From contig CALULC010000007.1 in the NCBI GenBank assembly GCA_944321385.1, forward strand, positions 1-35,603: 35,603 nt of DNA, read 5' to 3'. The position numbers were made by a program, and so were the translations under genes. This DNA comes from an uncultured Atopobiaceae bacterium. Its GTDB lineage: Bacteria; Actinomycetota; Coriobacteriia; Coriobacteriales; Atopobiaceae. Under the pieces are notes generated by a model. The model was given only the letters and a program-made list of their open reading frames with translations, had not been told where the DNA came from and did no database searches. Shown piece by piece: positions 2,482 to 21,159 of the stretch; the stretch's first letter is position 1, and the number at the start of each line of letters is the position of its first letter.

Positions 2482-2839
2482 GGGATTCTCCTCTCGTGGG
2501 GCGTCGCGCGGGCGCCCGCCCGTGCCCGGGCGCAGGAATTTGCTCGGGTTTTACTCGGCCATTCTCTCACATACTCGAGAGGTCGAATAAATAACGTACT
2601 TTGGTTTGCTGAAAATGGCCCTCGCGAAAGGAAAAGCCCAGCTCGCGATTTTCTTTCAGGAATCCAAACTGCATTATTTTTTGAGCTCGACAAGTAGCCC
2701 CCGTTTCAGACTCCTCGGCAGGCGCGCCAATGACCGCCAAAGGGCGACGCCCAGTGACAATCTCATCAGAAAAACGGACGGCCGGGCCTACCATGGGAGA
2801 AACGCGTCGCACGAGGCGGCGCAAAAGGAGAGGAACGCC
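2482..2839. promoter_or_regulatory. Divergent intergenic region with a hairpin (2609-2659)
   Basis: This 358-base gap separates the divergent NifX-like gene and the flavoprotein-sulfite reductase fusion. It holds an imperfect inverted repeat: CTGAAA (2609-2614) pairs with TTTCAG (2654-2659), and inside it TCGCGA occurs twice (2622-2627 and 2643-2648). It could be an operator or a leader hairpin for the fusion gene. I could not define a confident -35/-10 pair. The AT-rich run near 2670-2685 is the likeliest promoter area. Confidence 0.4.
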
Positions 2840-7507: not shown

Positions 7508-8271
7508 TGGGCGGAATCGAAGCGTTTCGGGAGGCGATGGCAGGGCACGAGGATGAATACGTGCTGATTGGCGGAGGCGCATGCAGCGTCCTGTTTGATC
7601 GAGAAGCCGTTCCGTTTCGCGCGACAAAAGATCTCGACATGGTGGTTTTGGTCGACAAGGGCGGGAGCGGGTTCGCCAGGGCCCTCTGGAGCTTTATTGT
7701 AAGCAATAGCTACGACTGCTGGAAGCATGCAGAAGGGGGCTGCTCCTACTATCGTTTTGTGCTCCCAAAGAATAGCCCGAGCGCGACAAGGCTGCCGGAA
7801 CAAATTGAGCTCTTTGCCCGTCACCCAGACTTCACGCTGGAAGACGAAGAATCAGAAATAACTCCCCTGCCCTTCGATGAGGGCATCTCCAGCCTGTCCG
7901 CCATCATCCTCGATGACGGCTACTACGAGTTCATTCAAAAGCACGCACTCACGGTCGACGGCATTCCGATGTTGGACGCGATTCACATCATTCCTCTCAA
8001 GATGCGCGCGCACATTGACCTGAACAGGAAGCATGAGGCTGGTCGGCATGTCAACGATAAGGACCTCGTAAAGCATCGCGGCGATGTTGCAAAGCTAGCG
8101 CTTCTGCTCTCTACCACCAACAAGCTCCCGCTTGAGGGCAGAATGCGCGACGATGCCGAAGCGTTCATTGCAGATTTTGGCAACTACGCTCAGCGCCAGA
8201 CAAATCGAAAGCAGCGGCGCATGCTAGAAGACGGCCTCAAGGTTCTGAGGTCGACCTATCTTGAGGCATAG
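7498..8271 (+). CDS. AbiEii-like nucleotidyltransferase toxin
   Basis: The 257-residue protein has the minimal nucleotidyltransferase core: VLIGGGACSVLFD (G25-G27), then RATKDLDMVVLV with D45 and D47 as metal ligands, the pattern of AbiEii/AbiGii enzymes. Related toxins (for example MenT) add nucleotides to tRNA 3' ends, and AbiE systems abort phage infection; the exact activity here is unknown. The ATG at 7498 follows AGGGGG and lies inside the end of the upstream regulator, implying co-translation. The next gene converges from the other strand. Confidence 0.72.
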   Translation: MPVVGGIEAFREAMAGHEDEYVLIGGGACSVLFDREAVPFRATKDLDMVVLVDKGGSGFARALWSFIVSNSYDCWKHAEGGCSYYRFVLPKNSPSATRLPEQIELFARHPDFTLEDEESEITPLPFDEGISSLSAIILDDGYYEFIQKHALTVDGIPMLDAIHIIPLKMRAHIDLNRKHEAGRHVNDKDLVKHRGDVAKLALLLSTTNKLPLEGRMRDDAEAFIADFGNYAQRQTNRKQRRMLEDGLKVLRSTYLEA

Positions 8272-8360: not shown

Positions 8361-9287
8361 TTACTCTGCGGCCCCGCTTTTCTCCGCAAGCCGTTTCGCG
8401 AACTCTTCGCTGAGTTCAAGCTCGCCAGGTGCAGTAAAGTCGCCCTTCAGGTTCTGCGCAAACACATCGGCAAGACGCTCCCCCATGGGGCGAAAGGTTG
8501 CAAACGTAATTGCCCCCGAAACAACACCCCCGACCACCGGAACCGCTTTCGTTATGGTCTTCTCGACAGTCTTCTTGGTGATTTTCTGTCCGACAAGCGC
8601 TCCAACCTTCTTGATGAGCGGGTACCACGTAGTTTTTGTCAGAGCTTTAGCCGCAACCTTCTTGCCAACAGTCTTGCCCACAGCTTCGGAAGTTACTTTT
8701 ACCAGCTGCGCGGCGCCTCCCGCTCCAAACATGACGCCCAAATACGCGAGTATTTTAATCTTGGCTTCCTCGGACATCTCCGTAGATCCATCCTCGAAGA
8801 GCTCGTCCTCCCCAAACAGGTATGCCAGCCTTTCGGCAAGGTAAATCGCGAAGCCGAAATACTGGACAACATCGGCGCCGCCCGCAGCGACCATGGTAAG
8901 CGGGCTCGAGGGCAAGCCAGAGACGAAGCTCGCCACTGATGTCTTAGTGGTGCATTCATTTATTACAGTGTTGGCCTTCTTACGTAGCGCATCCGGAGAG
9001 TACACCGCTTGAGGTCCATGTTCAATGATCTCATCAAGATACGGTGACTTTGCAAACTGCTTGCGGAGAAACTCATCACGATCGCCCCGAATGATGGACA
9101 GCCGCGAAACCTTGGCAATCATGCCAATTGCCGTGTCGTAAAGCGAATCCTCGCCGTCGCCCTCCACCGAAGCGACAAGAGCGCCCCCCGCTGACTCCGA
9201 GGCTGTTTCTTTGATTTTTGTTCCGCAGCTCGGACAGAACTTCGCAGCTGAAACAAGGCTGCGGCCACAATTGGGACAAACGGCCAT
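8361..9287 (-). CDS. Zinc-ribbon EcsC-like protein
   Basis: A 308-residue protein. Residues 4-21 form a zinc ribbon, CPNCGRS...FCPSCG (C4, C7, C18, C21). The rest is helical with small-residue-rich segments. Near the C-terminus AVPVVGGVVSGAITFATFRPMGERL closely resembles the end of EcsC-family proteins. EcsC-like proteins are membrane-associated and of unknown biochemistry. I prefer the ATG at 9287, which follows AAGGAGCCGCCTC and starts at the zinc ribbon; an earlier in-frame start at 9323 has no ribosome site. It is last in the minus-strand block, 156 bases after the single-pass membrane protein. Family call moderate. Confidence 0.7.
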   Translation of the reverse strand: MAVCPNCGRSLVSAAKFCPSCGTKIKETASESAGGALVASVEGDGEDSLYDTAIGMIAKVSRLSIIRGDRDEFLRKQFAKSPYLDEIIEHGPQAVYSPDALRKKANTVINECTTKTSVASFVSGLPSSPLTMVAAGGADVVQYFGFAIYLAERLAYLFGEDELFEDGSTEMSEEAKIKILAYLGVMFGAGGAAQLVKVTSEAVGKTVGKKVAAKALTKTTWYPLIKKVGALVGQKITKKTVEKTITKAVPVVGGVVSGAITFATFRPMGERLADVFAQNLKGDFTAPGELELSEEFAKRLAEKSGAAE

Positions 9288-9443
9288 GAGGCGGCTCCTT
9301 AGGCGACGACGCTCGGACGACAATCTGCAAGACAGCTTTAGGATAAGCCCGGAGCGACCGCGCGCAAATTACACTCCCAACAGAAAGTACAGCCTTATTC
9401 CCAAGCTCATGCAGTCGCATCAAAACAGGGCCAGTCAGAGTAT

Positions 9444-10373
9444 CTACTCCAAGCGCGTAAGGCTCTCAATTACCGCGGCCTCTATGTCCTTTTGCTGGGA
9501 CGCCATCAGATAGTCCGATGTCCTCACCACACATGTACCCACAACCGTGTGGGAACCAGTCGAGAGCATGCCCCCATCAAAGGCCCCGAGATAAGCGTCG
9601 CGCTCCTCCGCATCCTCGACGGTCGCGTAAACCTCAACCGCGCCACCAGCGTCTGTTCCAAGGGCGGGAATACCCGTATAACCTTCGCTTGGCCATACCT
9701 CATCTTGGTTTACCAAGTCAGACGAGAAGTACACCGTAGCCGTATAGCCGCCCTGCTTGTTCAGATTGCCGTTTGGATCGTTGTTCTCGGTGACAGCCTC
9801 AACACCGGAAATATTTGGAAGGCCCGTAATTCGCTCGATTACAAACTGCTCAGTCGGATTGGTAACCTGTTTGAGCTGGTCAATGCTGTTTTGCAGGTTC
9901 GCCTGCGCCTCCGCAAGAGAGGCGATTTGAGCGGAATAATCACCCACCCCTTCCACCTCGTCGGCAAGGGCATGAATCTCCTCCGTCCCGCTAGGCATCT
10001 TGGGGGCATCACACCTGGCGCCCTGCGCTTCTCCAATAGCAGCACTTGCCGCATCTAGGGTGGCGGGATCAAGAGGGCCAGGCTCGGAGCCCATAAGTTC
10101 CTGCAAATCCGCAATGGCGTCATCAAGCTCCGCATTGCGCTCATTGAGTCCAGCAACCGCGGCGTTGAACTCAGACTCCGCCTCACTATGCGGAATCTGG
10201 TAGCTTACCACCCAAACTCCAATGGCAATCGCAGCGACTACGATGACGGCAGCAATGAGGCCAATCTTTCTTGCGGCGAGCTTCTTTTGCTGAGATAAGC
10301 TCTCGGTTATCTCGATCGCCTCAGGCTCCTCGGTCTTCCCCGGCTCTTCGGAATTGTTTGGCTGCTCAGACAT
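9444..10373 (-). CDS. Single-pass membrane protein with coiled-coil and conserved C-terminal domain, unknown function
   Basis: A 309-residue protein. The N-terminus (1-35) is acidic and cytosolic. Residues about 37-57 (IGLIAAVIVVAAIAIGVWVV) form one membrane helix. Residues about 62-185 are helical with heptad-like spacing. Residues about 200-309 form a compact domain (GGYTATVYFSS, GGAVEVYATVEDAEERDAYLGAFDG, GSHTVVGTCVVRTSDYLMASQQ) that looks conserved, but I cannot name it. The layout suggests an extracellular sensor or anchor. Its promoter region carries the CAGTTGNNAACTG operator also found before the kinase and the lipoprotein, so it is probably co-regulated with them. The EcsC-like gene follows. 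Confidence 0.65.
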   Translation of the reverse strand: MSEQPNNSEEPGKTEEPEAIEITESLSQQKKLAARKIGLIAAVIVVAAIAIGVWVVSYQIPHSEAESEFNAAVAGLNERNAELDDAIADLQELMGSEPGPLDPATLDAASAAIGEAQGARCDAPKMPSGTEEIHALADEVEGVGDYSAQIASLAEAQANLQNSIDQLKQVTNPTEQFVIERITGLPNISGVEAVTENNDPNGNLNKQGGYTATVYFSSDLVNQDEVWPSEGYTGIPALGTDAGGAVEVYATVEDAEERDAYLGAFDGGMLSTGSHTVVGTCVVRTSDYLMASQQKDIEAAVIESLTRLE

Positions 10374-10404
10374 TCTTGGTCCCCCTCTCCCTTAATTCCA
10401 CTTC

Positions 10405-10447
10405 ATTCTGGGAGAGCTGGCCGAGAGAATCCTCAGTTGGCAACTGA
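10405..10447 (-). promoter_or_regulatory. Shared CAGTTGNNAACTG operator and promoter, site 1
   Basis: CAGTTGGCAACTG at 10434-10446 is a perfect palindrome with a 1-base centre. On the reverse strand it is followed by GAGGATTC and then CAGAAT (10410-10405) as a weak -10, 19 bases after a TGAGGA-type -35. The same blocks, in the same order, precede the lipoprotein and kinase genes. Confidence 0.7.
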
Positions 10448-10569
10448 AATACGTTTGGCTGCCCTTTTCAACGTCTGGCAATTATCTGTCATTACGTAAG
10501 CGAGCCGCCCTGCCCCAGTTCCCAGAAACGCCGCCTACCTCAACCTAAGCGGGCAACGAGTAAAATGGC

Positions 10570-10611
10570 GGCTCGCCTCAGCCAAAACTCGGTTTTGTAC
10601 TGAGGCGAGCC
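10570..10611 (-). terminator. Nested hairpin terminator after the immunity gene
   Basis: GGCTCGCCTCAG (10570-10581) pairs perfectly with CTGAGGCGAGCC (10600-10611), and within the loop CAAAAC pairs with GTTTTG. On the reverse strand it is followed closely by ATTTTA. It probably ends transcription of the GTPase-ATPase-nuclease-immunity operon. Its CTGAGGCGAGCC arm resembles the CTGAGACGAGCC arms of the arrays around the GH20 gene. Confidence 0.7.
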
Positions 10612-10666
10612 ACGGTTCATAAAGCCTCCGCTGAGCAGGGTGGAACCTCGCTGTCTATGCACGCAA

Positions 10667-11044
10667 CTAAATGAGAGCGTCTTGTTGGTCGATGACTGTC
10701 AGCGTTTCGTTCGTAAACTGAAGGGCGATGCCATGCTCAGGGTCAAAGCGGTATGCACAGAGTAGCAAAACAACGCGCTTGTTCTCATTCCTCTCAACGT
10801 AGAGCCCCTCGGGAATCACATACTTAAATACATTGTCTACAGTCTCGGAGCCGATGTCTCTTCCGTTGTTTTCGAGACAGTACCGCTCGACCTCAGGCTT
10901 GGCCTCATCGACCACCTGCCAGGACTTCCGCAGGGCCTCAAGGGCGTCCTTCTGCGACTGAAGAATCTCTTCGCCCGTACAACAATCAAAGTAGACCCTT
11001 AGAGAAAAGTCTCTTCCCCAAACCTTAGTTGTCAAAGATTGCAT
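10667..11044 (-). CDS. Probable immunity protein for the upstream HNH nuclease
   Basis: A 125-residue soluble protein. An N-terminal strand region (WGRDFSLRVYFDCCTGEEI) precedes a helix, then YVIPEGLYVERNENKRVVLLLCAYRFDPEHGIALQFTNETLTVI, a pattern I associate with small immunity-type proteins next to polymorphic toxins. The ATG at 11044 lies inside the nuclease gene, giving a 20-bp overlap, the usual layout for a toxin and its immunity gene. It is visibly richer in A+T than the chromosome around the island. The immunity role is inferred from position, size and fold pattern, not shown. The operon ends in a strong hairpin after it. Confidence 0.62.
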   Translation of the reverse strand: MQSLTTKVWGRDFSLRVYFDCCTGEEILQSQKDALEALRKSWQVVDEAKPEVERYCLENNGRDIGSETVDNVFKYVIPEGLYVERNENKRVVLLLCAYRFDPEHGIALQFTNETLTVIDQQDALI

Positions 11045-11738
11045 AAAGCCTCTTCACTCCCGTCGCTTCATCCCGATGCCTGCACTCAGAAACGCCCCCT
11101 GAATGCCTAAACGTTGCATGTATGTCCCTGTCTACAAACATGCAGGTCTTTCTATCGGAGCATTCGTGGATTGTTAGGTTATTTGCCTCGCACCACGTCT
11201 TAACGTCTCTTGAAGTCCAATCTGTCCTGCCGTCACGCCCAGACTTATTCCATTGTTCGGCAAGTTTCAATCTTGCTTGTTCGAAATTCCCGCTAAGCCC
11301 GTACCTCTCAACACCCATATTGTCAATCTTGACAACCGCCTCGGAGCAGGGCTCAAAATCCGGCACCGCATCCCGAAACTCGATACCGTCGAGGCCGTAG
11401 CACTTGAGCTTTTCCTCTGCGCGCGCCCCCCTCTCGCTTTCGGGGTTTGGGACACACATAGACTCCCCTTTTTCACCAATAAAGAACGCGTCTTTTCCAG
11501 CGGGGGTTAACCCTAGTCTCTCGAGGTAGTCTGTGAAAAAAGGGCTTCGGACTTTTTCGATTAAGTCCCCGATGCTCTCGCCAATGGATTCCACTCGCTC
11601 GTGAACTGCCCCACCAACCTCTCTTATTCGGTCGCCAAAATCTATCCCGCTCTGACTCTTCACATTCTCTGAAAGAGGCTTCGCAGCTTCGAAGAACTCC
11701 CCTCCCATACCTCCTACACCACCTTTGAGCGCCCGCAC
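11025..11738 (-). CDS. HNH/Endonuclease VII (WHH-like) nuclease, probable toxin
   Basis: Up to 237 residues. The C-terminal part (about 165-225) reads WTSRDVKTWCEANNLTIHEC followed by FVDRDIHATFRHSGGVSECRHR, matching the HNH/Endo VII toxin pattern 'W/LHH...G.MQLVP..IH....H.GG' with key histidines kept, although the usual first His pair is IHE. The N-terminal 60 residues are glycine-rich then amphipathic; the middle is unknown. HNH toxins of this type cut DNA. The longest frame starts at GTG 11738, inside the ATPase gene. ATG 11708, just after AGGAGG at the ATPase stop, may be the true start although the spacing is short. It is coupled upstream to the HerA-like ATPase and downstream to the immunity gene. 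No signal peptide is seen, so it acts inside the cell or is exported by another route. Confidence 0.68.
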   Translation of the reverse strand: MRALKGGVGGMGGEFFEAAKPLSENVKSQSGIDFGDRIREVGGAVHERVESIGESIGDLIEKVRSPFFTDYLERLGLTPAGKDAFFIGEKGESMCVPNPESERGARAEEKLKCYGLDGIEFRDAVPDFEPCSEAVVKIDNMGVERYGLSGNFEQARLKLAEQWNKSGRDGRTDWTSRDVKTWCEANNLTIHECSDRKTCMFVDRDIHATFRHSGGVSECRHRDEATGVKRLYAIFDN

Positions 11739-14700
11739 CAGTTACGGAAAGCCTGCTCGTCGTTGAGCTTTCGATACAAGCTGTCAACCATAACGCAGTG
11801 AATAATCGTCCTTCTAACCTGATCAATAATCTCTTCTTCAAGACATCCACGCAACGCGGCATCTGCGGCGTCAGTCCAAGCATCAGGGTTCTTGGTCCGG
11901 ATGTAGGCATCTTCTACGGCGACGCTCACAGACGGGAACAGAGCCGCAACGAGAGGCGCAATCGCGGCAATCTTTGGCTTTTCCCTTTCAGGGCGAACCG
12001 CCTTGAGAATTGCGACCTTCGTAGAGGCACTGAGATCAAGGTGCGAAAGCCGCATCTTTACGTCCTTCAAAACCTGTTCCCCACTCAAAGAAGTGATGCC
12101 ACAAAGAACCTCGGCCACCCTTGCGGCGTCATCGAGGTCCTCGTATTGGCGAGTCCGGCTCTCCCGCACATACTCATACCGACCTCCACCATGCTCAGCC
12201 TTGTCGATCTTGCACAGCACGGCCTCGATCCAGTCGTTCTGGTATACCGCCGCAACGCCGCGCGGCAGCCTCGCGAGCTCCGTTGTCTGCGCCTCGGTCA
12301 GCGCCTCTGCTCCACCAACAAGCTGACGGTCACTGCCGTCGGGTAGGCGCATAACAATCTTGGTGTTCGTGTTCCTAATCACCGACGCGTCAAGCAAACC
12401 CGGAGCTTGGTCGGCAATGATGAAGCCTTCCCCATACGTGCGCATTTCGGCAACAGCGTTCGAGAGCATCTCCACGCTCTTACCCAGCAGATTGCCACCC
12501 TCAACAGGCTGCTCCGTCGACGTCTTCCTAAGAAGGTTGTGCGCCTCCTCAAGAACGGTCACGTGGCGTAGCCCAGCATTGTGCGCAATCCCCTGAGTCA
12601 TGCGCCGCTCTTGCAGCTTGAGAACGAGAATGCCCATGAGCAGGGACTTTGTCTCACTCGAGCCAACCCGGCTCAAATCAACAATCGTCCGTCCATCAAA
12701 TAGGTCGGCCTGATCGGTCTCATCCGAGGAGAACACCATCCCGTTGATGCCGGAGGAAAGGGAACTCAGGCGCGTGAGCAGCGAACCCTTGTAAGCACCC
12801 TTGTTCTCAGCATCGTACTCGCTCGAATCGATAATCTCGCGTACGTTGCGAGCCACGTCGGCAAAGCAGGGATAGAGGTCATCGCCGTACGGGTTTCTCG
12901 ACTCCACCAGATTCCAGCCGCAGTCCTCATAGGACTTCTCGATAGCGCTCTTGAGAACCGCTGGCATTGCCGCATACATAGGCCAGCATACGTTGAAAAT
13001 CTCCACGAGCCGGTCAAGGTGCTCGAGCACGTGCATGCCCGCAGGGAAGCCGAAGGGGTTGAGCCTGAGCAGCGGCGCGTACTCAGGATTGGTGCCGTAC
13101 ACGCGCGCCCCAGCGTCAGCACCAAAGACGTCCTTGTACTCCCCCTTTGCCGGCTCCACAACAAGGAAGCCAACGCCCTCTTGGGCCACTCCCTCGAGCA
13201 GGCGGTATACGGCGTTGCTTTTACCCGCGCCAGTGCTGCCCGTCACAAAGACGTGCGACGCCAATGAATTCATATCGAGAAGTACGGGGGTAGGCTCCTC
13301 GCGATGCATGTGGAAGATGGAGCCGAGGCGAACGCTCTTGCCGTTCGATCGCCCGTCGAAGGTGGAGACGTTCCTGCCAAAACTGGCACACTCAAAGACT
13401 GGAAGGCCCGCCACGGACTTGCGTGGGAAGTTGAGCGACCGCGCAAGCTCCTTGCCGGTCAGAGTCGTCGTTGCCGTCACTGCCGCGGGATACGGCAGCA
13501 CGTTGGGCTGGCTCTCCACGATATCGAGGTTGAGTCCAAATGCAGGGTGGCGCAGGTCCCTTAGGTAGCTGCAGATTGTAGCCGCGGCATGATTGTCTGG
13601 AACATCACCACGCCAGACGTTCACCGACGCCTGCGACATGAAGGATTCCTCGCCCTGGGTCAGCGCCAGATAGGAGTGGGCAACGTTGTTGGCGGTCACC
13701 ACATCTTCGCTCAAGACATAGGCGGCAAAATCCCAGAGGCCGAGCGCCGCACCCTGCTCCAAGCGCGCCATCTGCTTCTCGAGAAGTTCGAGGGCATGCT
13801 TGATGGCGTAGTTGGTATGAGTCTGGGTGATGCCCTCGTTTTTTCCGATCGTTGCCGTAACGGTAGAAGAGCGTGCAAAGTTGACGCCAAAGTTGCCGCC
13901 GAGATTGGCGCTGGCAAAGCTGCCAACGGTATTGGTGAGGGAGCGGGTAACGGACTTGCCGAGGGTGTTGGAGAGAGCGCGGCTGGTGGTGCGTCCCACG
14001 GTCTCGCTGATGCCTTTGGTTAGTCCCTTTGAATATGAAGCAGAAACGCTGCCTTGAACAGAAACCGGAGAAAGGACCGAGGTTCCAACGGAAACATTCG
14101 ATGATCCTCCCGCAGTATCAGTCTCAGACTCCGACTCCGCCACCTGCCTCGAATCGCCCTCGGTATCCGTGGTCCCACGACTCTCGGACTCCGCCAGGGC
14201 CTCGCCGTCGCTCAGCGACTGGTTGTTCCCCTGCTGGCTGCCTATGCTCAGACCCGCATTCACGCCAACGGTTGCCGAGGAGCCCTGGGCGCTGGATTCT
14301 TGGTACGTGTACTGCGTCTGCCAGGAGGAATATGGCGCCAAGCCCGTATAGAGCTGCTCGAGGCGCAGTTTGCGCTCCTCAACATCGAGGGTGGGCGTTG
14401 CCAGCAGGACGAGCGCGTACTCCTCCCGATGGTTGCGCGGGACAATGCCGTCAAGCAGCTTTTCGATGGTCTGGCTCACGAACTTCTCGGACTTCTCGGT
14501 AGGCACGTTTGAGACCGTGGCGACCGAGACTTCACCCATGCCTCGAAGACAAGGCGGAGTGCCGGAACCAACTCCCCCGGAGCACTCAGACCCTGGAAAG
14601 TTACCGCGAAGCGCCTCCTCGAGCCTGCGCGCAAACGAGTCGGCATCAACGTTGTTGTTGGCGTTCTCCGTATTGACAACGGCAAGGTAGACATCTGTCG

Positions 14701-15133
14701 AGAGCTTGGTTCGATGAAACACCAGCGCGATGTTGCACCTATCGCTGGACAACACGTCATAGACGTTGACCAGCTTCTCTAGGCTGTTCTCCTCCGGGTC
14801 GCTCACCCACTTTGTGATGTTAAGAAACCTGATGTTGCGAGCGGCGTCGAACGGTCCGTCGTACTCCGCCTCAGAGCCGAGGGGCAGGTAGATGCTGCCA
14901 ATCTGAGGAAGATAGGCGCTGTAAATCTCTACGCCCGCAGCGGCGATAAGACGGCTCGTCTGCTCGATTGCCGTGGCGTCATCAGCGGACGGCATCTCCT
15001 CGAGATAGCGGGCGCGCTTCTCCTCAACCTCCTTGAGCTGGCCGGGGCTGAGAGTGGAGAGCTTGAAGACGGCGTTTCCCGCTTTGCCCGCAGCCTTGCC
15101 GATTGCTCCCCCGATGGCGCTCTTAATTCCCAT
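11714..15133 (-). CDS. HerA/VirB4-like P-loop ATPase with long Ser/Gly-rich insertion
   Basis: A 1139-residue protein. Residues 1-27 are Gly/Ala-rich (GIKSAIGGAIGKAAGKAG). Residues about 60-270 form an alpha-beta region of unknown fold. Residues about 280-440 are a low-complexity Ser/Thr/Gly stretch with repeated SxS, TVGRTTSRALSNTLGKSVTRSL and similar. The ATPase core has Walker A GSTGAGKSN (about 631-639), LVVEPAKGEYK, and Walker B TVLEEAHNLL (about 853-862), and ends with MRLPDGSDRQLVGG and an arginine-rich segment, as in HerA (DUF87) pumps and the VirB4/TraC core. Such enzymes form hexamers that move DNA or protein. The ATG at 15133 is 3 bases after the GTPase stop, with GGGGAGG overlapping that gene's end. 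The nuclease gene overlaps its 3' end. The ATPase family is secure; the system-level job is not known. Confidence 0.82.
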   Translation of the reverse strand: MGIKSAIGGAIGKAAGKAGNAVFKLSTLSPGQLKEVEEKRARYLEEMPSADDATAIEQTSRLIAAAGVEIYSAYLPQIGSIYLPLGSEAEYDGPFDAARNIRFLNITKWVSDPEENSLEKLVNVYDVLSSDRCNIALVFHRTKLSTDVYLAVVNTENANNNVDADSFARRLEEALRGNFPGSECSGGVGSGTPPCLRGMGEVSVATVSNVPTEKSEKFVSQTIEKLLDGIVPRNHREEYALVLLATPTLDVEERKLRLEQLYTGLAPYSSWQTQYTYQESSAQGSSATVGVNAGLSIGSQQGNNQSLSDGEALAESESRGTTDTEGDSRQVAESESETDTAGGSSNVSVGTSVLSPVSVQGSVSASYSKGLTKGISETVGRTTSRALSNTLGKSVTRSLTNTVGSFASANLGGNFGVNFARSSTVTATIGKNEGITQTHTNYAIKHALELLEKQMARLEQGAALGLWDFAAYVLSEDVVTANNVAHSYLALTQGEESFMSQASVNVWRGDVPDNHAAATICSYLRDLRHPAFGLNLDIVESQPNVLPYPAAVTATTTLTGKELARSLNFPRKSVAGLPVFECASFGRNVSTFDGRSNGKSVRLGSIFHMHREEPTPVLLDMNSLASHVFVTGSTGAGKSNAVYRLLEGVAQEGVGFLVVEPAKGEYKDVFGADAGARVYGTNPEYAPLLRLNPFGFPAGMHVLEHLDRLVEIFNVCWPMYAAMPAVLKSAIEKSYEDCGWNLVESRNPYGDDLYPCFADVARNVREIIDSSEYDAENKGAYKGSLLTRLSSLSSGINGMVFSSDETDQADLFDGRTIVDLSRVGSSETKSLLMGILVLKLQERRMTQGIAHNAGLRHVTVLEEAHNLLRKTSTEQPVEGGNLLGKSVEMLSNAVAEMRTYGEGFIIADQAPGLLDASVIRNTNTKIVMRLPDGSDRQLVGGAEALTEAQTTELARLPRGVAAVYQNDWIEAVLCKIDKAEHGGGRYEYVRESRTRQYEDLDDAARVAEVLCGITSLSGEQVLKDVKMRLSHLDLSASTKVAILKAVRPEREKPKIAAIAPLVAALFPSVSVAVEDAYIRTKNPDAWTDAADAALRGCLEEEIIDQVRRTIIHCVMVDSLYRKLNDEQAFRNWCGRSKVV

Positions 15134-15136
15134 TTC

Positions 15137-17653
15137 CTATTCCTCCCCGCGCCAGCTCATGAGCGACGAGACGCGCTCCTCCGCACGCCGCAGCCGGTCT
15201 CGCTTGAGCCTGAGCTCCGCAAGCTCGCGCTCATTCTTGCGAATGAACTCGAGCTTTGCGCGAAGCTCGGGATTGAGACCCACGATGTTCTCGCCCAGCT
15301 CATCAGTCAGCTCCTCCAACCACTCAAGGAAGCTCGCCTCGTGCGCCGGCTCAACGGCAGCACGCCACTGCGAGACGCGCCGCGAGAGCTCGAGGTTGTG
15401 CTGCAGGGCAAGGGGCGCCTTCCAGAGCCTGTTGGGATCAAACGGGAGCCGGATGTCCTTGATCTCCGGGACCGAACCCACAAGGCTCAGAGGGCGGAAG
15501 CTCAGGATGATGCCGCGAAGGGCGTCCCGCTGGGATTCGTCGATCTCCTCACCATTGGAGACCAGGTCCAGCAGGCCGTCCCTCGCCCTTTGGGCGCAGA
15601 GCTCCCAATAGTGCTTCGACCTTGCCTCGACCATGCTTATCGACCGGCTCAGCTCGGTGTCAAAGTGCTCGCGCACGTGACCGAGAAGGTCTTCCGAGGC
15701 GCTCCTGTCCGCGGCGTGTCGCGCATCCATCTCCTCGGAATGGCTCTCCAGTGCTTTGGAGATGTCGCCAACCAGACTTGCAGCAAGGTTCCCCAAACCA
15801 AGGAAGTCCCTGGAGTCGACCATCGTGGAGAAGCGCTCCTTGAATCTCCGGGTAACCGCAAGACGTGACTCGTCGGCGGCGCGGTCCTTCTCGTCGACTC
15901 CCTCTTCCTGCTGTCGGACCCTTGAATACTCGTCCTCCCATCCGCGAAGTATGTCCGTGTCGAGCATCGCCCCAGACGTAAAGTCGCGCTCGTTCATGAA
16001 GGGCAGATAGCCGCCGGTCGCCTGCTCTCGAAGGGCGGCAGACATAGCGTCAAGGCGCTCAAGGTGCGCCGCGCGACTCTCGTCCAAGTCGTTCTCGCCC
16101 AGGCGCTTGCTTTCCTGGAGCCTGGACGAAGCGTCCTCAAGCGCGTCGTCGGTTTTCTCGATGAGCTTACGGAGAAGGGCATCCGAGCGATAGCACTTGT
16201 TGTAGACGGAATACTTGGTGGCAAAGTCCTCAATTCCGCACTCCACGCTGTAGAGTCCGCTGTTGGCGAGAACCGCGTCCGGGCAGGCCTCCGCATCGGC
16301 GAGCATCTCTGCTCTGAGCTGCGCGGGCATAAGATCGTAGTCGTACAGCCTCGTGTAGTAGCGGTCCTCCGGGTCCTGGTAACTCATGAGCAGCTGGCGA
16401 TAGCAGCGGTCGTAGTGACGATCGAACAGGCGCCCTCCGCTCTTTGCCCCGAGGCCCATGACTGAAGAGGCGAAATAGACTCCCTGGGCATAGAGATTTC
16501 GAGCCACGGCGGTTCCCATGACGTAGTCAACGTCGTCGGGCGTGAGCCCTCCCTCGGGAAGGTCTGCCGCATCCGCCTTGTTCACCACAATCATCGAGAA
16601 GCGCTCATCAAGGGCTTCGATTTTCTTTATCTCGTCGTAGAGCTCGGCGTTGTCGTTGCTGTCTATCGCGCTGTACTCCGTCACGTAAATCGGCAGACCG
16701 TCCGACATGCCCCGCATGGCCTCTTGCAAAACGCGAAGATGGTCGACGTTAGAGTTGGAGTTTGATCCCGGCGTGTCAAAGATGACGAAGTGCTTGTCTC
16801 GCATCCATGCGTCGCTCCTGTACGGAACCCGCACTTTCACGAGATTACCGATGAGCTCTCCCTCTTCTGCCTTGTAGCCATTGATTGAGGCGAGGATCTT
16901 ACGAGCTCTCTCCACAACAGGAGAAGTGTCATCCGGGGAGACCGCTGCTGCGATCTTCTGTGCAAACGCCCCTTCGGGTTTGGGGCTCGATACCGTTGCG
17001 CCGCTATCCGCCATGTTAACCACAAGCTCGCCGCCCATGTAGTCAATCGCAATGCTCGCCCTGTCAGGCTGATCGGAACGCTCGATGCGATAGACGCGGG
17101 CAGTGAGGGGCTTGTCACCGCTTGGAAGAAGCTCCGCGCCAATGAGGGCGTTGATGAACGTGGACTTTCCGGAGCTGTAGTTGCCAACGACACAGACGGG
17201 AACAACGTCTCCCGAGGCATCCTTGAACTTCTTCAGGAGGTTGCCGGCAACCGCATCGCCTCCCAAGGATCCGGAGATGATCGAAGAGACGCCCTCGAAC
17301 TCGCTTCTCACAAAGGGAAGGATGTCGCGCGCGTTTGCTAGGGAGCGACCTCCTCGCACAAGCCGCACGCTCTCGCGAAGGGGAGACTCGGCACATACGC
17401 CAATAAGCTCGGCCCATTCGTCATCCGGGCCCTCGAACACAATCTCAGTGGGTTCGTCCGGACGGCCGTACTCGGATATGATGCTCTCCACGATCTGATG
17501 GGCCTTAAAGGGCAGAAAACCCTGCACAAACTGCTTGCCCAGGAGCGCACTGTTTGGATTGCTTTCCCGGTCAAGGGGGACCCAGGCATTGTTCCAGCTC
17601 ATGAACTGTGTTGAGCGGCGATACGGGTTGCTGACGATCTTAACCTTGGACAC
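15137..17653 (-). CDS. Dynamin-like large GTPase
   Basis: An 838-residue protein. Residues 1-130 are unique. The GTPase domain has G1 GNYSSGKST (about 157-165), a G2 threonine in PLTARV, G3 FDTPGSNSNS (about 292), and G4 VNKAD (about 357-361), the pattern of bacterial dynamin-like proteins. Residues about 480-838 are long charged helices (for example RLQESKRLGENDLDESRAAHLERL and a C-terminal EFIRKNERELAELRLKRDRLRRAEERV coiled coil), as expected of a stalk. No membrane helix is seen, so membrane contact would be peripheral. Bacterial dynamins remodel membranes, and some protect against phage or membrane damage. It heads the tightly coupled GTPase-ATPase-nuclease-immunity operon. The ATG at 17653 follows a GGTTAAG stretch rather than a strong ribosome site, so the start is somewhat less certain. 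Confidence 0.85.
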   Translation of the reverse strand: MSKVKIVSNPYRRSTQFMSWNNAWVPLDRESNPNSALLGKQFVQGFLPFKAHQIVESIISEYGRPDEPTEIVFEGPDDEWAELIGVCAESPLRESVRLVRGGRSLANARDILPFVRSEFEGVSSIISGSLGGDAVAGNLLKKFKDASGDVVPVCVVGNYSSGKSTFINALIGAELLPSGDKPLTARVYRIERSDQPDRASIAIDYMGGELVVNMADSGATVSSPKPEGAFAQKIAAAVSPDDTSPVVERARKILASINGYKAEEGELIGNLVKVRVPYRSDAWMRDKHFVIFDTPGSNSNSNVDHLRVLQEAMRGMSDGLPIYVTEYSAIDSNDNAELYDEIKKIEALDERFSMIVVNKADAADLPEGGLTPDDVDYVMGTAVARNLYAQGVYFASSVMGLGAKSGGRLFDRHYDRCYRQLLMSYQDPEDRYYTRLYDYDLMPAQLRAEMLADAEACPDAVLANSGLYSVECGIEDFATKYSVYNKCYRSDALLRKLIEKTDDALEDASSRLQESKRLGENDLDESRAAHLERLDAMSAALREQATGGYLPFMNERDFTSGAMLDTDILRGWEDEYSRVRQQEEGVDEKDRAADESRLAVTRRFKERFSTMVDSRDFLGLGNLAASLVGDISKALESHSEEMDARHAADRSASEDLLGHVREHFDTELSRSISMVEARSKHYWELCAQRARDGLLDLVSNGEEIDESQRDALRGIILSFRPLSLVGSVPEIKDIRLPFDPNRLWKAPLALQHNLELSRRVSQWRAAVEPAHEASFLEWLEELTDELGENIVGLNPELRAKLEFIRKNERELAELRLKRDRLRRAEERVSSLMSWRGEE

Positions 17654-17813
17654 AACGGCCCCTTCCGACGAGCAGCGCTACGTTTGCCAAGCCATTGGAA
17701 GCCCGGCGTCCAACTTCGCTAATTCTATCTGGTGATATAAGTCCGTTTACCGACCTAGCGGCGGGCGAGCGCATTGAGGAGTAAACGGAGAGACGGGGCC
17801 CGCCTGAACGGGA

Positions 17814-17844
17814 GCCGCCCCCATTCGCTGTGAATGAGGGCGGC
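17814..17844. terminator. Hairpin downstream of the lipoprotein gene
   Basis: GCCGCCCCCATTC and GAATGAGGGCGGC pair over 13 bases with one mismatch across a 5-base loop. It lies just after the stop of the minus-strand lipoprotein gene and before the GTPase gene. No T-run follows, so terminator activity is only probable. Confidence 0.45.
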
Positions 17845-17877
17845 AAGGTTACGTTAGATTTCCCGCCATTGATGCTT

Positions 17878-18762
17878 CTACGCTGTCTCCACAGCTATGC
17901 ATAAGGCGTCGTAATAGTCTCGGTAAACCACTTCGATGGTATACCCTTCATCATTAGAAGCTTCGAACCAAGTATCACTATCTGTTTCGACGTTAGAAAA
18001 CCCTGCGCTCTTGCATTGCTCAACGTAGGGCGCAAAGTCGTCTTCCGTTGGTCCGTAGACGTAAACGTATGAGCGATCATCTTCGTCGTCGTGTATAACA
18101 ACGGCATCCTTTTTTTCGATAACGGGAGCGAGCTGACCAAGCTCACTATCAGGCCAATCAACGACTTCCTTTGTATGGTCAATATCAATTGAATAATTAT
18201 CGTTGAGGAAGTCGTAATACTCGAGATAGACCTTTCCATCCCCACCAAGATACTCGATGCCGATGTAGCTTGGCTCCATAAGCTCGTATTGGTCCATTGT
18301 CAAAATCTTACCCGTATATGCCAGAGTGCAGAGAGACGGCTCAGCGCTCTCGCCGGGCTTCGTGTAGTGTGCATTTTCTCCATCGACATAGAACTCGCTC
18401 GGCTCAACAGTAGGCGCAAAATCACCTTCGTAAACTTCATCAAATACTGATCTCTGTTCATCAGTAACGTCTTCACGCTGAGTGAATTGCATGTCGATGT
18501 TAATGACTGCGTATTTTGAATTATTCGTATAGGCAAGGGTAACTCGTCTGGTCCCGTTTTCTATTGTTGGCTCAACTGTCCAATCAATCTCGTCAATCTT
18601 GATTGAGTCATCCTGACCGGGTCCGTCGGTTGCTGGAATCGCTTGCTGCCCCTGCGTCCCTCCTGACGGCGTCGCCGCCCCACCGGGCTGTCCACCGCCG
18701 CACGCGCCGAGCGACAGCGCAAGGGCCGCCGCGCAGACCACGACAAACATCTTCTTGGCCAT
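17878..18762 (-). CDS. Secreted lipoprotein of unknown function
   Basis: A 294-residue protein with a classic lipoprotein signal: MAKKMFVVVCAAALALSLGAC, lipobox LGAC with C21 as the lipid-bearing cysteine, then a Gly/Pro/Thr-rich linker. Residues about 50-190 read as a beta-rich domain (EIDWTVEPTIENGTRRVTLAYTNNSKYAV...), similar in feel to the extracellular part of the neighbouring kinase. Residues about 195-294 include VVIHDDEDDRSYVYVYGPTEDDFAPYVEQCKSAGF, an unnamed domain. Markedly lower G+C than its neighbours. The ATG at 18762 follows GAAAGGAGGCCAAG. The shared CAGTTGNNAACTG operator lies about 60 bases upstream. Being surface-anchored, it could supply signals to the kinase; that is inference. 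Confidence 0.75.
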   Translation of the reverse strand: MAKKMFVVVCAAALALSLGACGGGQPGGAATPSGGTQGQQAIPATDGPGQDDSIKIDEIDWTVEPTIENGTRRVTLAYTNNSKYAVINIDMQFTQREDVTDEQRSVFDEVYEGDFAPTVEPSEFYVDGENAHYTKPGESAEPSLCTLAYTGKILTMDQYELMEPSYIGIEYLGGDGKVYLEYYDFLNDNYSIDIDHTKEVVDWPDSELGQLAPVIEKKDAVVIHDDEDDRSYVYVYGPTEDDFAPYVEQCKSAGFSNVETDSDTWFEASNDEGYTIEVVYRDYYDALCIAVETA

Positions 18763-18791
18763 CTTGGCCTCCTTTCAGAACGGTGAGTCCC

Positions 18792-18833
18792 ATTCTGAGA
18801 AGGCGTGTTGAGTGATTCCTCAGTTGCCAACTG
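18792..18833 (-). promoter_or_regulatory. Shared CAGTTGNNAACTG operator and promoter, site 2
   Basis: CAGTTGCCAACTG at 18821-18833. On the reverse strand GAGGAATC follows, then CAGAAT (18797-18792) after a 19-base spacer from TGAGGA, the same spacing as site 1. The start codon of the lipoprotein gene is about 30 bases further on. Confidence 0.72.
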
Positions 18834-18867
18834 AATTATGCGAGCGGTCGCCGGGCGCCCCCAAACG

Positions 18868-20511
18868 CTACCACTGCATAGCGCACACGTCATACGAGGC
18901 GAAGTCGGGAGCGCCAAACATGCTGACCTCGAACGACGTCGACTCACCCTCCGCCGGGGTGCTCACAAAGCTCACGGTCCCGCACAGGATGGCGCCCGTC
19001 TCATCGCGCAGCACCACCACAACTGCAACCTCTTGGGGTCCAATCTGCGGATCCCCGGAGGACACAGTCGTCAGATCACCCGTGAAGTTCGTGTTTCCGA
19101 TGCTATCCGTGGTCGCGTTCGTCCCAGACACCGAAAAGCGCGAAGCCTTGGCACCCTCTTTCAACTGGTAACTTTGAGGTTTAATGGGAGCAAAGTCCAC
19201 CGTCGCGGGCTTGGTTCCGTTGCCCGCCTGAGAGCCCCAGTACACGGTTTCGCCGGGTTCCAGAACAAGGAGAGCTTGCTCTTCGGAGAAGACCACGCGA
19301 CCGGACGCATCACGACCTGTAATAGTAAAGCTCGGCGAACTCACGGCAACGTCGCTGTTGTTGCGCAGCCCGACCGCGTAGTGCACGTAACCTTGATCGC
19401 TCGCCACCCACCCGGACTCCACGATCTCAAGGTCGGCCGTCAGCTCCTCGGGAGCCTCGCCGCCCGCGGGATCGTCGCTCGCTGCGGGCGCGTCTCCGCC
19501 GGCGCCCTCGCCGTCCGCGCCCTCGCCTCCCGCAGGTGCCTCCGCCGCCGGCGCGTCCGCGGGCCCATCGCTCTTCTCGCCGCCGCGACCAAACGTCACC
19601 GCCAGGATGATGCCCACCGCCGCCACAAACGCAACGACGGCCATCACAGCGAGAAGCACCTTCACCCAGTTGCGCCTCCGCGGCGCGAGCTCAAACGCGG
19701 GCGGCGCCATCGGGTCCGCAACTGCCTCGGCCTCCACGACCTTCTCGCTGCCCAGCGCCCGGGCCAGCTCGGCCACGCTCTGGTAGCGAGCGCTCGGCTC
19801 GAGCGCGCTCGCCCGGCGCACCACCTCGCGCACGCCCGCGCCCACCACGCTCTCGTCCGCGAGGGCCCGCTCGTACTCCGCGGTGTCCGGCGTCTCCGGC
19901 CGCACACCCGTGAGCAGGTAGCCCAGGACGCGACCGAGCGAGTAGACGTCCGAGCGGGCGTCGGTCTGCGCGTAGCCGCACTGCTCCGGCGAGGCAAAGC
20001 CGCGCGTGCCGAGCTGCGTGGTGTCGTGCGTCACGCCCTCGGTGCGAAAGCGCGCGATGCCAAGGTCGATGAGGTGCACGCCGTCCGCCGCCATCACGAT
20101 GTTCGACGGCGAGATGTCGCGGTGGATGATGCCGTGCGCGTGCAGCGCTGCCACCGCCTCGCAGAGCTGGGCGACTATCGTGCACGCGTCCTTCTCGCCA
20201 ACACGGCCATGCCCGGCGACAAACTCCTCGAGATTCTCTCCGGGGACAAAGTCGCAGACCACCACAAACTCGTCGGGCATCTCGTAGGTTGCCACCACGC
20301 GCGGGAGACGGGCGCAGCCGCACTCGGCAAGCATGGCCCACACGCCGCGACGGGCCAGCTTGGAGGGTATACGCTTGCGGATGAACGGGCCCGAGCCGTC
20401 AAGCGAGACAAGCTCGGTCACACCGCCGGGCCCGCTCGCGAGCACACGGTCGACCGTGTAGGCATCGTCGATGCCCAGCGCATGTATGACCTGGCGGTCG
20501 TTCACATCCAT
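18868..20511 (-). CDS. Transmembrane Ser/Thr protein kinase (PknB-like) with extracellular domain
   Basis: A 547-residue protein. Residues about 15-260 form a eukaryote-type kinase domain: invariant lysine in FIRKRI, catalytic loop HRDISPSNIV (H130-R131-D132), metal loop DLGIAR (DLG in place of DFG) and GTRGFASPEQ in the activation segment. The glycine loop is weak (ASGPGGVTEL). Residues about 283-305 form one membrane helix after an RRR stop. An Ala/Gly/Glu/Pro linker leads to a beta-rich extracellular domain (about 355-547; LEIVESGWVASDQGYVHYAVGLRNNSDVAV), similar to FxLYD-type modules. It probably senses an outside signal and phosphorylates cytosolic partners, perhaps the HTH protein or the GTPase. 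The ATG at 20511 is preceded by a TATAAC -10 and by operator site 3. Confidence 0.9.
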   Translation of the reverse strand: MDVNDRQVIHALGIDDAYTVDRVLASGPGGVTELVSLDGSGPFIRKRIPSKLARRGVWAMLAECGCARLPRVVATYEMPDEFVVVCDFVPGENLEEFVAGHGRVGEKDACTIVAQLCEAVAALHAHGIIHRDISPSNIVMAADGVHLIDLGIARFRTEGVTHDTTQLGTRGFASPEQCGYAQTDARSDVYSLGRVLGYLLTGVRPETPDTAEYERALADESVVGAGVREVVRRASALEPSARYQSVAELARALGSEKVVEAEAVADPMAPPAFELAPRRRNWVKVLLAVMAVVAFVAAVGIILAVTFGRGGEKSDGPADAPAAEAPAGGEGADGEGAGGDAPAASDDPAGGEAPEELTADLEIVESGWVASDQGYVHYAVGLRNNSDVAVSSPSFTITGRDASGRVVFSEEQALLVLEPGETVYWGSQAGNGTKPATVDFAPIKPQSYQLKEGAKASRFSVSGTNATTDSIGNTNFTGDLTTVSSGDPQIGPQEVAVVVVLRDETGAILCGTVSFVSTPAEGESTSFEVSMFGAPDFASYDVCAMQW

Positions 20512-20550
20512 CGCCCCAGTTGTTCGGTGGCCGGTATGTCAATGGTAAAG

Positions 20551-20590
20551 GTTATATTCAGTTGATGACTGATTCCTCAGTTGAGAACTG
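20551..20590 (-). promoter_or_regulatory. Shared CAGTTGNNAACTG operator and promoter of the kinase gene, site 3
   Basis: CAGTTGAGAACTG at 20578-20590, then GAGGAATC on the reverse strand, then TATAAC (20556-20551) 17 bases after TGAGGA (20579-20574). An extra half-site CAACTGAA lies between operator and -10. It is the best-looking promoter of the three, about 40 bases from the kinase start codon. Confidence 0.75.
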
Positions 20591-20664
20591 AATCGCGTGC
20601 GGCAGGCGGGCGTCTTTGACGCGTCGGGCGGCGAGAAGCGCGCACCGCCAGCAACCACGCGCCC

Positions 20665-21159
20665 CTACTTGAGCGGACTGGTCCCGAACAGGGTCTTCTC
20701 GCCCAGGCGGTAGAGTTCTTCATCCGTCTGCAGGCGGGTGAAGCCGTGATTGATGCACCAGATGATGATGGCGTCGCGGCGAACCTTGGGCCAGAGCTCC
20801 GCCACGCCGTCCAAGCGCAGAAGGCGCTGGGCCTCAAGCAAGGTGCAGCCCATGCCGAGCGCGAGCATGATGGCGTTGTCGCGGCCGAGACGGCTCTTAC
20901 CTTTGAATACGTCGTAGACGAAGGTGGCGTTGACGTCCGAGGCGCGGATGATCTCCGAGCGCTTGAGGCCCTTCGCCGCGCGGAGCTGCTCGAGGTAGTC
21001 CGGCAGGGTGCGGTCGAGCGTGAGGTCCTGCTCGAGGTAGGCGTCCGGCGTGGGGGCGGCAAGCAGCTGCTCGAGGAGCTCGCCGGTCAGGCGCTCGCGC
21101 GGGGTCTCGTTCTTCTCGACGTTCTTCTCGACGTTCTTCTCAGCGCTCTTCTCGGCCAT
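20665..21159 (-). CDS. XRE-like helix-turn-helix protein, probable regulator of the kinase block
   Basis: A 164-residue protein. The N-terminus has a short tandem repeat (EKNVEKNVEKNE). Residues about 50-115 (TLPDYLEQLRAAKGLKRSEIIRASDVNATFVYDVFKGKSRLGRDNAIMLALGMG) fit a Cro/XRE-type HTH. The C-terminal part (LLRLDGVAELWPKVRRDAIIIWCINHGFTRLQTDEELYRLGEKTLF) is a helical module I have seen in HTH proteins next to Ser/Thr kinases. I use the ATG at 21159 because it follows GAGGAGCGTGC; an earlier start at 21255 would add unrelated residues. It sits immediately upstream of the kinase on the same strand, with the shared operator between them, so it is the first candidate to bind CAGTTGNNAACTG. Confidence 0.75.
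   Translation of the reverse strand: MAEKSAEKNVEKNVEKNETPRERLTGELLEQLLAAPTPDAYLEQDLTLDRTLPDYLEQLRAAKGLKRSEIIRASDVNATFVYDVFKGKSRLGRDNAIMLALGMGCTLLEAQRLLRLDGVAELWPKVRRDAIIIWCINHGFTRLQTDEELYRLGEKTLFGTSPLK
21109..21144. repeat. 12-bp tandem repeat in the HTH gene
   Basis: GTTCTTCTCGAC occurs twice in tandem followed by a diverged third copy. It encodes the EKNV repeats near the N-terminus of the HTH protein. It is in frame, so copy-number slippage would change protein length without breaking the gene. Confidence 0.85.

What the first reader, a model, noticed from the sequence alone, without database searches (positions are those of the whole stretch)
8361..21159. Candidate new system: kinase-controlled dynamin, HerA ATPase and WHH nuclease block
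Nine minus-strand genes combine parts not usually seen together: XRE regulator, transmembrane Ser/Thr kinase, lipoprotein, dynamin-like GTPase, HerA-like ATPase with a Ser-rich insertion, HNH nuclease, probable immunity protein, single-pass membrane protein and zinc-ribbon EcsC-like protein. The GTPase-ATPase gap is 3 bp, and the ATPase-nuclease and nuclease-immunity genes overlap. Established: dynamins and HerA ATPases each occur in phage-defence systems, and WHH-type HNH domains are common toxins. Inference: a membrane- or phage-sensing kinase controls a GTPase/ATPase machine that uses or delivers a nuclease.
Basis: partly seen in the sequence, partly recalled or inferred. Interest (0 to 1): 0.87.

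Follow-up and report, generated by a model that had tools for sequence, protein, structure and literature searches.

The report
Dynamin-HerA polymorphic nuclease toxin system
A widespread four-gene bacterial cassette pairs a fixed two-motor machine (a membrane-type GTPase and a pump-like ATPase) with interchangeable DNA-cutting toxins and their matching antidotes, which looks like a weapon system whose machine we could not find described.

Summary
Four form the unit: dynamin-like GTPase, HerA-family ATPase with a Ser/Thr-rich insert, nuclease, small DUF6985 protein (10667-17653, minus strand). In 79 of 80 relatives from a genome scan the GTPase gene lies within four genes upstream of the ATPase gene. 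In 140 genomes of the family all 13 with this GTPase carry it beside the ATPase. The next gene is a toxin whose C-terminal domain is exchanged between relatives (Colicin-DNase/WHH, Endonuclease_NS, LHH, HNH and others), and the gene after it changes in step (DUF6985, YezG, SUKH and others). The toxin N-terminus follows the ATPase (r 0.64); the C-terminus follows the small gene (0.89), hardly the ATPase (0.18). This is the signature of a polymorphic toxin-immunity system with GTPase and ATPase as constant machine. Kinase, HTH and lipoprotein are a chromosomal neighbourhood also found without the module. No known secretion tag, signal peptide or channel was found in the four genes, so delivery to rivals (favoured) versus intracellular, anti-phage use stays open. 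My ten library searches found no published description.

The parts
15137..17653 (-). dynamin-like GTPase (838 aa), constant component; G1 GNYSSGKST, G3 DTPG, G4 NKAD (motif names recalled)
   Evidence: Dynamin_N E 1.5e-17; model pLDDT 85.5, Foldseek best BDLP 2j69 E 3e-12, then IniA, SynDLP and others; beside HerA in 13 of 13 family genomes that have it
11714..15133 (-). HerA/VirB4-superfamily ATPase (1139 aa), constant component
   Evidence: DUF87 E 9e-10; ATPase domain 587-983 aligns with VirB4 4ag5 Z 33.0, DndH-C 32.9, HerA 4d2i 28.8; Walker A residues 632-639 conserved
13832..14305 (-). Ser/Thr/Gly-rich insert of the ATPase (residues 277-434), variable length (alignment slice 115-284 aa in 62 sequences)
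   Evidence: pLDDT < 50 over 277-434; S 17%, T 16%, G 12% over the slice
11025..11738 (-). nuclease toxin: variable N-terminal part plus C-terminal Colicin-DNase/WHH domain (residues 124-221, about 11076-11369); alternative ATG start at 11708
   Evidence: Pfam above cut-off; C-terminal class exchanged in relatives; start choice
10667..11044 (-). predicted cognate immunity protein, DUF6985 (125 aa)
   Evidence: DUF6985 E 2.9e-9; its immunity cluster occurs only beside the WHH toxin class, 21 of 21

Best explanation
The four genes at 10667-17653 are a polymorphic toxin-immunity system with its own machine. Shown by comparison: the dynamin-like GTPase and the HerA-family ATPase are the constant part. 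The toxin N-terminus is matched to that machine. The toxin C-terminus is an exchangeable nuclease (or other) domain that travels with its own small gene. Inferred: the small protein blocks its nuclease in the producer. The toxin N-terminal tail docks on the ATPase ring. ATP hydrolysis by the ATPase, with membrane binding or remodelling by the GTPase, moves the toxin across or out with the membrane, so that it degrades DNA in rival cells lacking the immunity protein. The kinase, HTH, lipoprotein, single-pass and EcsC-like genes are neighbours at an insertion hot spot, not components.
For: Conserved order: GTPase within four genes upstream of the ATPase in 79 of 80 genome-contig loci, the miss (L137) being a contig end; in 89 of all 104 non-redundant loci. 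Of the 89, 80 are direct neighbours and 77 have a gap of 50 bp or less; 79 have both a toxin-position and an immunity-position gene. In 140 family genomes the GTPase (E<=1e-20) is found in 13, always beside HerA. Families in 85 toxin-position proteins: Colicin-DNase 35, WHH 34 (overlapping sets), Endonuclea_NS_2 18, LHH 6, HNH 3, Ntox15 1. In 76 small genes: DUF6985 22, YezG 17, SMI1_KNR4 13, PoNi 2, Tdi1 1. Toxin class against immunity cluster: 17 of 17, 9 of 9 and 8 of 8 for three classes; Rand index 0.93 against at most 0.74 in 200 shuffles, 79 loci. Exchange between close relatives: ATPases 92.6% identical (L087/L092) and 87.4% (window/L042) with different toxin and immunity. Mantel r (77 loci): ATPase-GTPase 0.76; ATPase-toxin N 0.64, ATPase-toxin C 0.18, toxin C-immunity 0.89. 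Toxin class changes at least 30 times on the ATPase tree. A HExxH metallopeptidase with its own small partner stands beside the nuclease pair in 14 of 86 loci; in 13 of 13 tested its first 60 residues resemble the nuclease's N-terminus in the same locus beyond shuffles.
Against: No signal peptide or channel is evident: hydrophobic windows above 1.6 occur in 4 of 89 ATPases, 5 of 89 GTPases and 2 of 86 toxins. The strongest is in the window's own ATPase (2.22 at residue 1055, helical C-terminal domain), which the other 88 mostly lack. The module occurs in one- and two-membrane bacteria without an obvious outer-membrane partner in the stretches shown. Closest sequence matches of the ATPase are DNA translocases, CedD and anti-phage HerA proteins. 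A VirB4-like N-domain is not supported by profile comparison (probability 1.5%). Orphan immunity genes, expected for rival-directed toxins, were seen only as two copies with an in-frame stop in 140 genomes, tested for one immunity class. The N-terminal motifs match 46 of 83 toxins, not the window's own. Toxin class is still somewhat clustered on the ATPase tree (30 changes against a shuffled mean of 36.4, as low in 1 of 200).
Confidence: 0.55

Rival explanations
1. Intracellular defence (abortive infection or DNA interference). The ATPase-GTPase machine senses phage or plasmid DNA or membrane damage inside the cell, releases or feeds the docked nuclease, and the small protein is a restraining antitoxin. 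Diversity of nuclease and antitoxin comes from recombination with the pool of polymorphic toxin cassettes.
For: Most core proteins look soluble. HerA ATPases pair with effector enzymes in solved anti-phage complexes, among the best fold matches (Sir2-HerA, DUF4297-HerA). WYL-domain regulators lie upstream in the Treponema and Lactococcus loci and in a distant Acinetobacter relative without a near dynamin. The module lies on plasmids and at a chromosomal hot spot.
Against: Dedicated immunity genes exchanged with toxin class are the mark of toxins used against others. Known HerA defence effectors lack such immunity genes (recalled). PADLOC models gave no clear excess in the flanks over control regions.
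Confidence: 0.33
2. HerA-NurA-like DNA-processing complex: the nuclease works on DNA threaded by the ATPase ring, for host DNA repair or turnover, and the GTPase anchors the complex at the membrane.
For: Closest solved sequence relatives include the HerA of a HerA-NurA complex (9x1l E 1.3e-11).
Against: Several different nuclease families with matching immunity families at one position, and a patchy distribution (23 of 140 genomes with any HerA match, 13 with the GTPase), do not fit a housekeeping repair complex.
Confidence: 0.07
3. One reading: a membrane kinase with an XRE regulator controls the GTPase/ATPase/nuclease machine.
For: A kinase relative lies upstream of the module in the window, L042, L043, L044 and L047; an HTH relative was also called in L042 and L047.
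Against: Kinase orthologues at E<1e-140 in 22 of 30 other genus genomes but HerA in 6 of 30. HTH-kinase-lipoprotein (L150) and kinase-lipoprotein (L152) stand at the same place without the module. A kinase match lies within four genes upstream in 5 of 80 genome-contig loci.
Confidence: 0.03

Closest known systems
[quoted passage not shown] 2012, PMC3482391; 12 of 18 passages from a term search seen)
   Same: conserved N-terminus, exchangeable C-terminal toxin domain, adjacent cognate immunity gene; toxin and immunity families shared with such systems (WHH, Ntox15; SUKH, YezG, PoNi, Tdi1: assignment to such systems from Pfam descriptions and recall)
   Different: no known trafficking domain seen in the toxins; constant partners are a dynamin-like GTPase and a HerA-family ATPase. 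The held part of the paper's text has no occurrence of 'dynamin'
Type VII secretion (YueA/EssC FtsK-HerA motor with WXG/LXG toxins)
   Same: an FtsK/HerA-superfamily motor linked to polymorphic toxins; YezG-type immunity (link to LXG toxins recalled)
   Different: no LXG/WXG match in the toxins; YukC/EssB in 0 of 14 carrier genomes; long or split EssC matches in 3 of 14, one over the cut-off; one motor domain here
HerA anti-phage complexes (Sir2-HerA/Nezha, DUF4297-HerA)
   Same: HerA-fold ATPase in an operon with an effector enzyme
   Different: extra dynamin, about 600 aa N-terminal region with Ser-rich insert, immunity-type gene, exchangeable nuclease
Bacterial dynamin-like proteins (BDLP, IniA, SynDLP, Campylobacter dynamin pair)
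   Same: Dynamin_N domain and fold; Treponema, E. coli and Lactococcus loci carry a tandem dynamin pair
   Different: here fixed beside a HerA ATPase and toxin genes
NCBIfam NF033849 'serine-rich protein' (ser_rich_anae_1)
   Same: ATPase matches it over 277-939, E 2.6e-28
   Different: 98 bits against a cut-off of 650: a relative, not a member; the eight others tried also stay far below

Membership tests
Polymorphic toxin system | conserved N-terminal part joined to exchangeable C-terminal toxin domains | tested here: met
   N-part follows the ATPase (r 0.64), C-part hardly (0.18); swaps between close relatives
Polymorphic toxin system | cognate immunity gene next to the toxin and exchanged with it | tested here: met
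   Rand 0.93 against at most 0.74 shuffled, 79 loci; families. Inhibition itself not tested
Polymorphic toxin system | a recognised trafficking domain or secretion pathway | tested here: not met
   none among the 13 Pfam families matched by 85 toxins at E<=0.01; hydrophobic segment in 2 of 86 toxins
Polymorphic toxin system | orphan toxin or immunity cassettes | tested here: inconclusive
   further toxin- or immunity-like ORFs in 19 of 86 loci by a loose BLAST test, true pairs in L046 and L071 being the locus's own nuclease pair after a miscalled or peptidase ORF; two orphan immunity copies with an in-frame stop
Polymorphic toxin system | toxicity and protection in cells | not testable with these tools
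   needs bench work
Type VII secretion (T7SSb) | EssB/YukC and EssC in the same genomes | tested here: not met
   YukC 0 of 14 carriers (control B. subtilis rings); long or split EssC matches in 3 of 14, one over the cut-off
Type IV secretion (VirB4 motor) | VirB4 N-terminal domain and other T4SS genes | tested here: inconclusive
   full-length TrwK aligns over 575 residues, Z 22, rmsd 14, but N-domain profile match is 1.5%; CagE_TrbE_VirB in 0 of 101 family genomes
HerA-type anti-phage system | HerA-fold ATPase | tested here: met
HerA-type anti-phage system | partner effector of a known defence type | tested here: not met
   nuclease and small gene match no PADLOC model at E<=0.1
MADS defence system | MADS gene set around mad6 kinase and mad8 ATPase | tested here: not met
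Dynamin superfamily | Dynamin_N GTPase with helical stalk | tested here: met

The most novel reading that the evidence does not exclude
A new protein-delivery machine: a HerA-family ring whose Ser/Thr-rich insert reaches the membrane, working with a dynamin-like GTPase, exports or injects tagged nuclease and protease effectors into rival cells without any known secretion system.
Probability: 0.25. Interest if true: 0.93.

Novelty: new variant of a known kind. Interest (0 to 1): 0.77.

Why it matters
Polymorphic toxins are sorted by their delivery machine. Here the constant partners are a dynamin-like GTPase and a HerA-family ATPase, a combination I did not find in the searches named under Tried and rejected. 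If the machine delivers toxins it is a new secretion principle and gives bacterial dynamins a role in antagonism; if it works inside the cell it links toxin-immunity cassettes to defence. Both are testable in harmless hosts.

Tried and rejected
Kinase control: rejected by synteny. EcsC-like and single-pass genes as components: relatives anywhere in 5 and 1 of 80 loci.

Membrane-inserting beta-hairpin in the Ser-rich insert: not supported overall. Beta-type amphipathicity exceeds shuffles in only 35 of 62 rows. The 286-300 segment alternates strongly (52 of 62 rows in the top 5% of own shuffles), the 414-430 segment does not (0 of 62).

VirB4-like N-domain: suggested by the full-length structural alignment, not supported by profiles (N-domain 1.5%; column-shuffled 0.3%, reversed 0.5%), left open. 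VIA-align covered mainly residues 580-990, so no statement on the N-terminal fold is made.

A single N-terminal docking motif: a first strict pattern matched 18 of 100 toxin-position ORFs. Two looser patterns, written after looking at the sequences, match 25 and 21 of 83, 46 with either (shuffled means 3.3 and 0.2; other ORFs 46 and 9 of 893). The window's toxin matches neither.

Gene calling was mechanical (longest ORFs). Of 114 loci put in, L059 and L061 gave no ATPase ORF and 8 repeats were dropped, leaving 104; plasmid loci L037 and L038 were fetched but not put in. Miscalls known: L046's 'toxin' is a chance ORF (its true nuclease pair follows), L071's is the metallopeptidase, L135's a RelA/SpoT neighbour. 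A first clustering of toxin C-termini with 115 aa merged the classes; the 75-aa version is used. Two rows of the ATPase tree (L100, L135) have very long branches, probably mis-sliced. The 80 genome-contig loci are the best matches to an alignment in which 16 of 17 members have a dynamin gene nearby, so 79 of 80 describes this clade, not all relatives.

Defence-island test: 100 flanking ORFs (12 loci) against 100 sampled from 188 control ORFs of 11 of the same genomes; PADLOC matches at E<=1e-15 in 72 and 62 families, of which 25 each are shown; kinases and PDC-S01 lead the flank list. The output counts families, not proteins, so no rate is claimed.

Papers: ten searches. Dynamin with HerA/serine-rich/toxin, DUF87/HNH, HerA/polymorphic toxin, HerA-like/toxin/immunity protein, or SMI1/HNH/immunity gave 0. 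'polymorphic toxin'+dynamin gave 2, both on Neisseria in the listing. 'polymorphic toxin'+HerA gave 20, of which three were searched by term and seen as passages. DUF87+immunity protein+toxin gave 2, and a five-term dynamin search 4 (3 listed), by listing not about this. Dynamin+HerA+defense+phage gave 22, judged by listing only. Subscription papers and preprints are not covered.
Full report
What is there. Pfam gives Pkinase, DUF6591, Dynamin_N, DUF87, Colicin-DNase/WHH, DUF6985 and a zinc ribbon; the HTH gene is only a sub-cut-off match, and no EcsC model matches the last gene, which matches PADLOC candidate PDC-S30. The window's genome (76.5% complete) holds one copy of the ATPase and one of the GTPase, with two weak GTPase-domain matches elsewhere.

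The unit. Of 114 loci read, two gave no ATPase ORF and eight were repeats, leaving 104, window included. A co-oriented dynamin gene lies within four genes upstream in 89 of the 104. The other 15 are L033, L035, L036, L054-L058, L060, five viral contigs (L144-L148) and L137, which holds no gene upstream; a GTPase profile found none in these 15 either. In the 80 genome-contig loci it is 79. Of the 89, 80 are direct neighbours and 77 have a gap of 50 bp or less; the toxin-position gene follows within 50 bp in 82 of 86 and the next gene in 74 of 79. A GTPase search of the same 140 genomes found it in 13, in each beside the ATPase. The 89 carriers are mostly Bacillota (61), then Actinomycetota and the window's own family, with one Bacteroidota and one Spirochaetota genome locus and plasmids of Treponema, E. 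coli and Lactococcus, which have two dynamin genes. The E. coli form is rare: 1 of 5,426 genomes. Two unannotated phage records hold an ATPase relative.

Toxin and immunity. 85 toxin-position proteins give Colicin-DNase 35, WHH 34, Endonuclea_NS_2 18, LHH 6, HNH 3 and single cases such as Ntox15; one RelA/SpoT match is probably a neighbour gene. 76 immunity-position proteins give DUF6985 22, YezG 17, SMI1_KNR4 13, PoNi 2, Tdi1 1. Clustering the last 75 residues of the toxins gives five classes of 35, 17, 9, 8 and 7 and ten singletons. Three classes have one immunity cluster each (17 of 17, 9 of 9, 8 of 8). The class of 35 has the DUF6985 cluster in 21, a second cluster in 4, four single ones, and no called gene in 6. 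The class of 7 has one cluster in 5 and two single ones. The class of 8 has no Pfam family that I could assign to it. The Rand index is 0.93 against at most 0.74 in 200 shuffles. ATPases 92.6%, 87.4% and 80.5% identical carry different toxin-immunity pairs. With ORF parts overlapping the ATPase gene trimmed, the first 60 residues of the toxin follow the ATPase (r 0.64, p 0.001, 77 loci) and the last 75 hardly do (0.18), while the last 75 follow the immunity protein (0.89). On an ATPase tree the five classes need at least 30 changes; the shuffled mean is 36.4 and 1 of 200 shuffles is as low, so the classes switch often but are not fully random. In 14 of 86 loci a HExxH metallopeptidase (DUF6782-like) with a small partner gene stands beside the nuclease pair. 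In the 13 where it follows the pair, its first 60 residues resemble the nuclease's N-terminus in the same locus: at most 4 of 200 shuffles score as high in any of them (for L107 I moved the start by 24 residues after looking). So the machine may serve more than one effector. These are the features of polymorphic toxin systems.

What is not part of it. The kinase is found at E<1e-140 in 22 of the 30 other genomes of the genus, HerA in 6 of 30. Seven kinase loci of genomes without the module at that place were read; no GTPase or ATPase relative was called in any of them. HTH-kinase-lipoprotein precede a variable stretch that ends at the gene matching 2606-5419 in L150, kinase-lipoprotein likewise in L152, and kinase alone in L154; in L149 and L153 my gene caller picked an antisense ORF over the kinase, whose place is known. 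The window's module therefore sits at a chromosomal hot spot.

The machine. The GTPase model (pLDDT 85.5) matches bacterial dynamins. The ATPase model (pLDDT 73) has a clear HerA/VirB4 domain at 587-983 (VirB4 Z 33.0, DndH 32.9, HerA 28.8), an unordered Ser-rich stretch at 277-434 and a helical end. Walker A and the glutamates at 862-863 are conserved. Typical membrane segments are rare in the family (4 of 89 ATPases, 5 of 89 GTPases, 2 of 86 toxins above 1.6); the window's own ATPase has the strongest, 2.22 at residue 1055 in the helical end, so membrane contact there cannot be excluded. Type VII secretion is absent or incomplete in most carriers (YukC 0 of 14, long or split EssC 3 of 14).

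How it most likely works. Shown: constant machine, machine-matched toxin N-terminus, toxin C-terminus matched to immunity. Inferred: the small protein inhibits the nuclease; the N-terminal tail docks on the machine; GTPase and ATPase act at the membrane to pass the toxin to rivals. I put about 0.9 on a toxin-immunity system with this constant machine and 0.55 on the whole statement with delivery. The main rival is intracellular defence (0.33): most of the proteins look soluble and HerA proteins are known in anti-phage complexes. I could not decide between them.

Known or not. The reference survey of polymorphic toxins (PMC3482391, 12 of 18 passages from a term search seen) names FtsK/HerA-type motors for type VII and type IV systems and has no occurrence of 'dynamin' in the held text. 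The ten library searches found no description of this combination. This covers open-licence papers only.

Noticed in passing
L079, L082, L086, L088, L089, L099, L104, L107, L108, L118, L122, L139, L142 (after the nuclease pair) and L071 (before it): A HExxH metallopeptidase (DUF6782-like, about 230 aa) with a partner gene of about 98 aa; its N-terminus resembles that of the nuclease in the same locus in 13 of 13 tested. It may be a second effector or a protease that activates the toxin.
   Followed up: partly
window 2606-23847 against L150, L152, L154: Insertion hot spot between the HTH-kinase-lipoprotein genes and the gene at 2606-5419; cargo differs between genomes of the genus.
   Followed up: partly
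L035 9110-13659, L055 8917-13460: A distant subfamily of the same ATPase is followed by a 515-aa protein with a glycine-zipper-like end (weak Pfam matches) and no dynamin neighbour found, perhaps another effector type.
   Followed up: no
L142, L143 (IMG/VR contigs): The four-gene module lies on contigs classed as viral; whether they are true phages was not checked.
   Followed up: no
G019:C17:28295-30802 and G058:C57:20359-22908: The dynamin match runs across in-frame stops in two carriers (3 and 1), so the gene may be damaged there or the assembly wrong.
   Followed up: no
window 11714-15133, residue 1055 of the ATPase: A hydrophobic stretch (19-residue mean 2.22) in the helical C-terminal domain, the strongest of 89 relatives.
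   Followed up: no
window 8361-9323: Zinc-ribbon protein strongly matching PADLOC phage-defence candidate PDC-S30 (E 5e-89); a relative (34%) sits in L149, near the same chromosomal place in another genome.
   Followed up: no
window 6488-7507 and 7498-8271: Two overlapping plus-strand genes beside the module with no confident family match in the libraries each was tried in; possibly a toxin-antitoxin pair.
   Followed up: no
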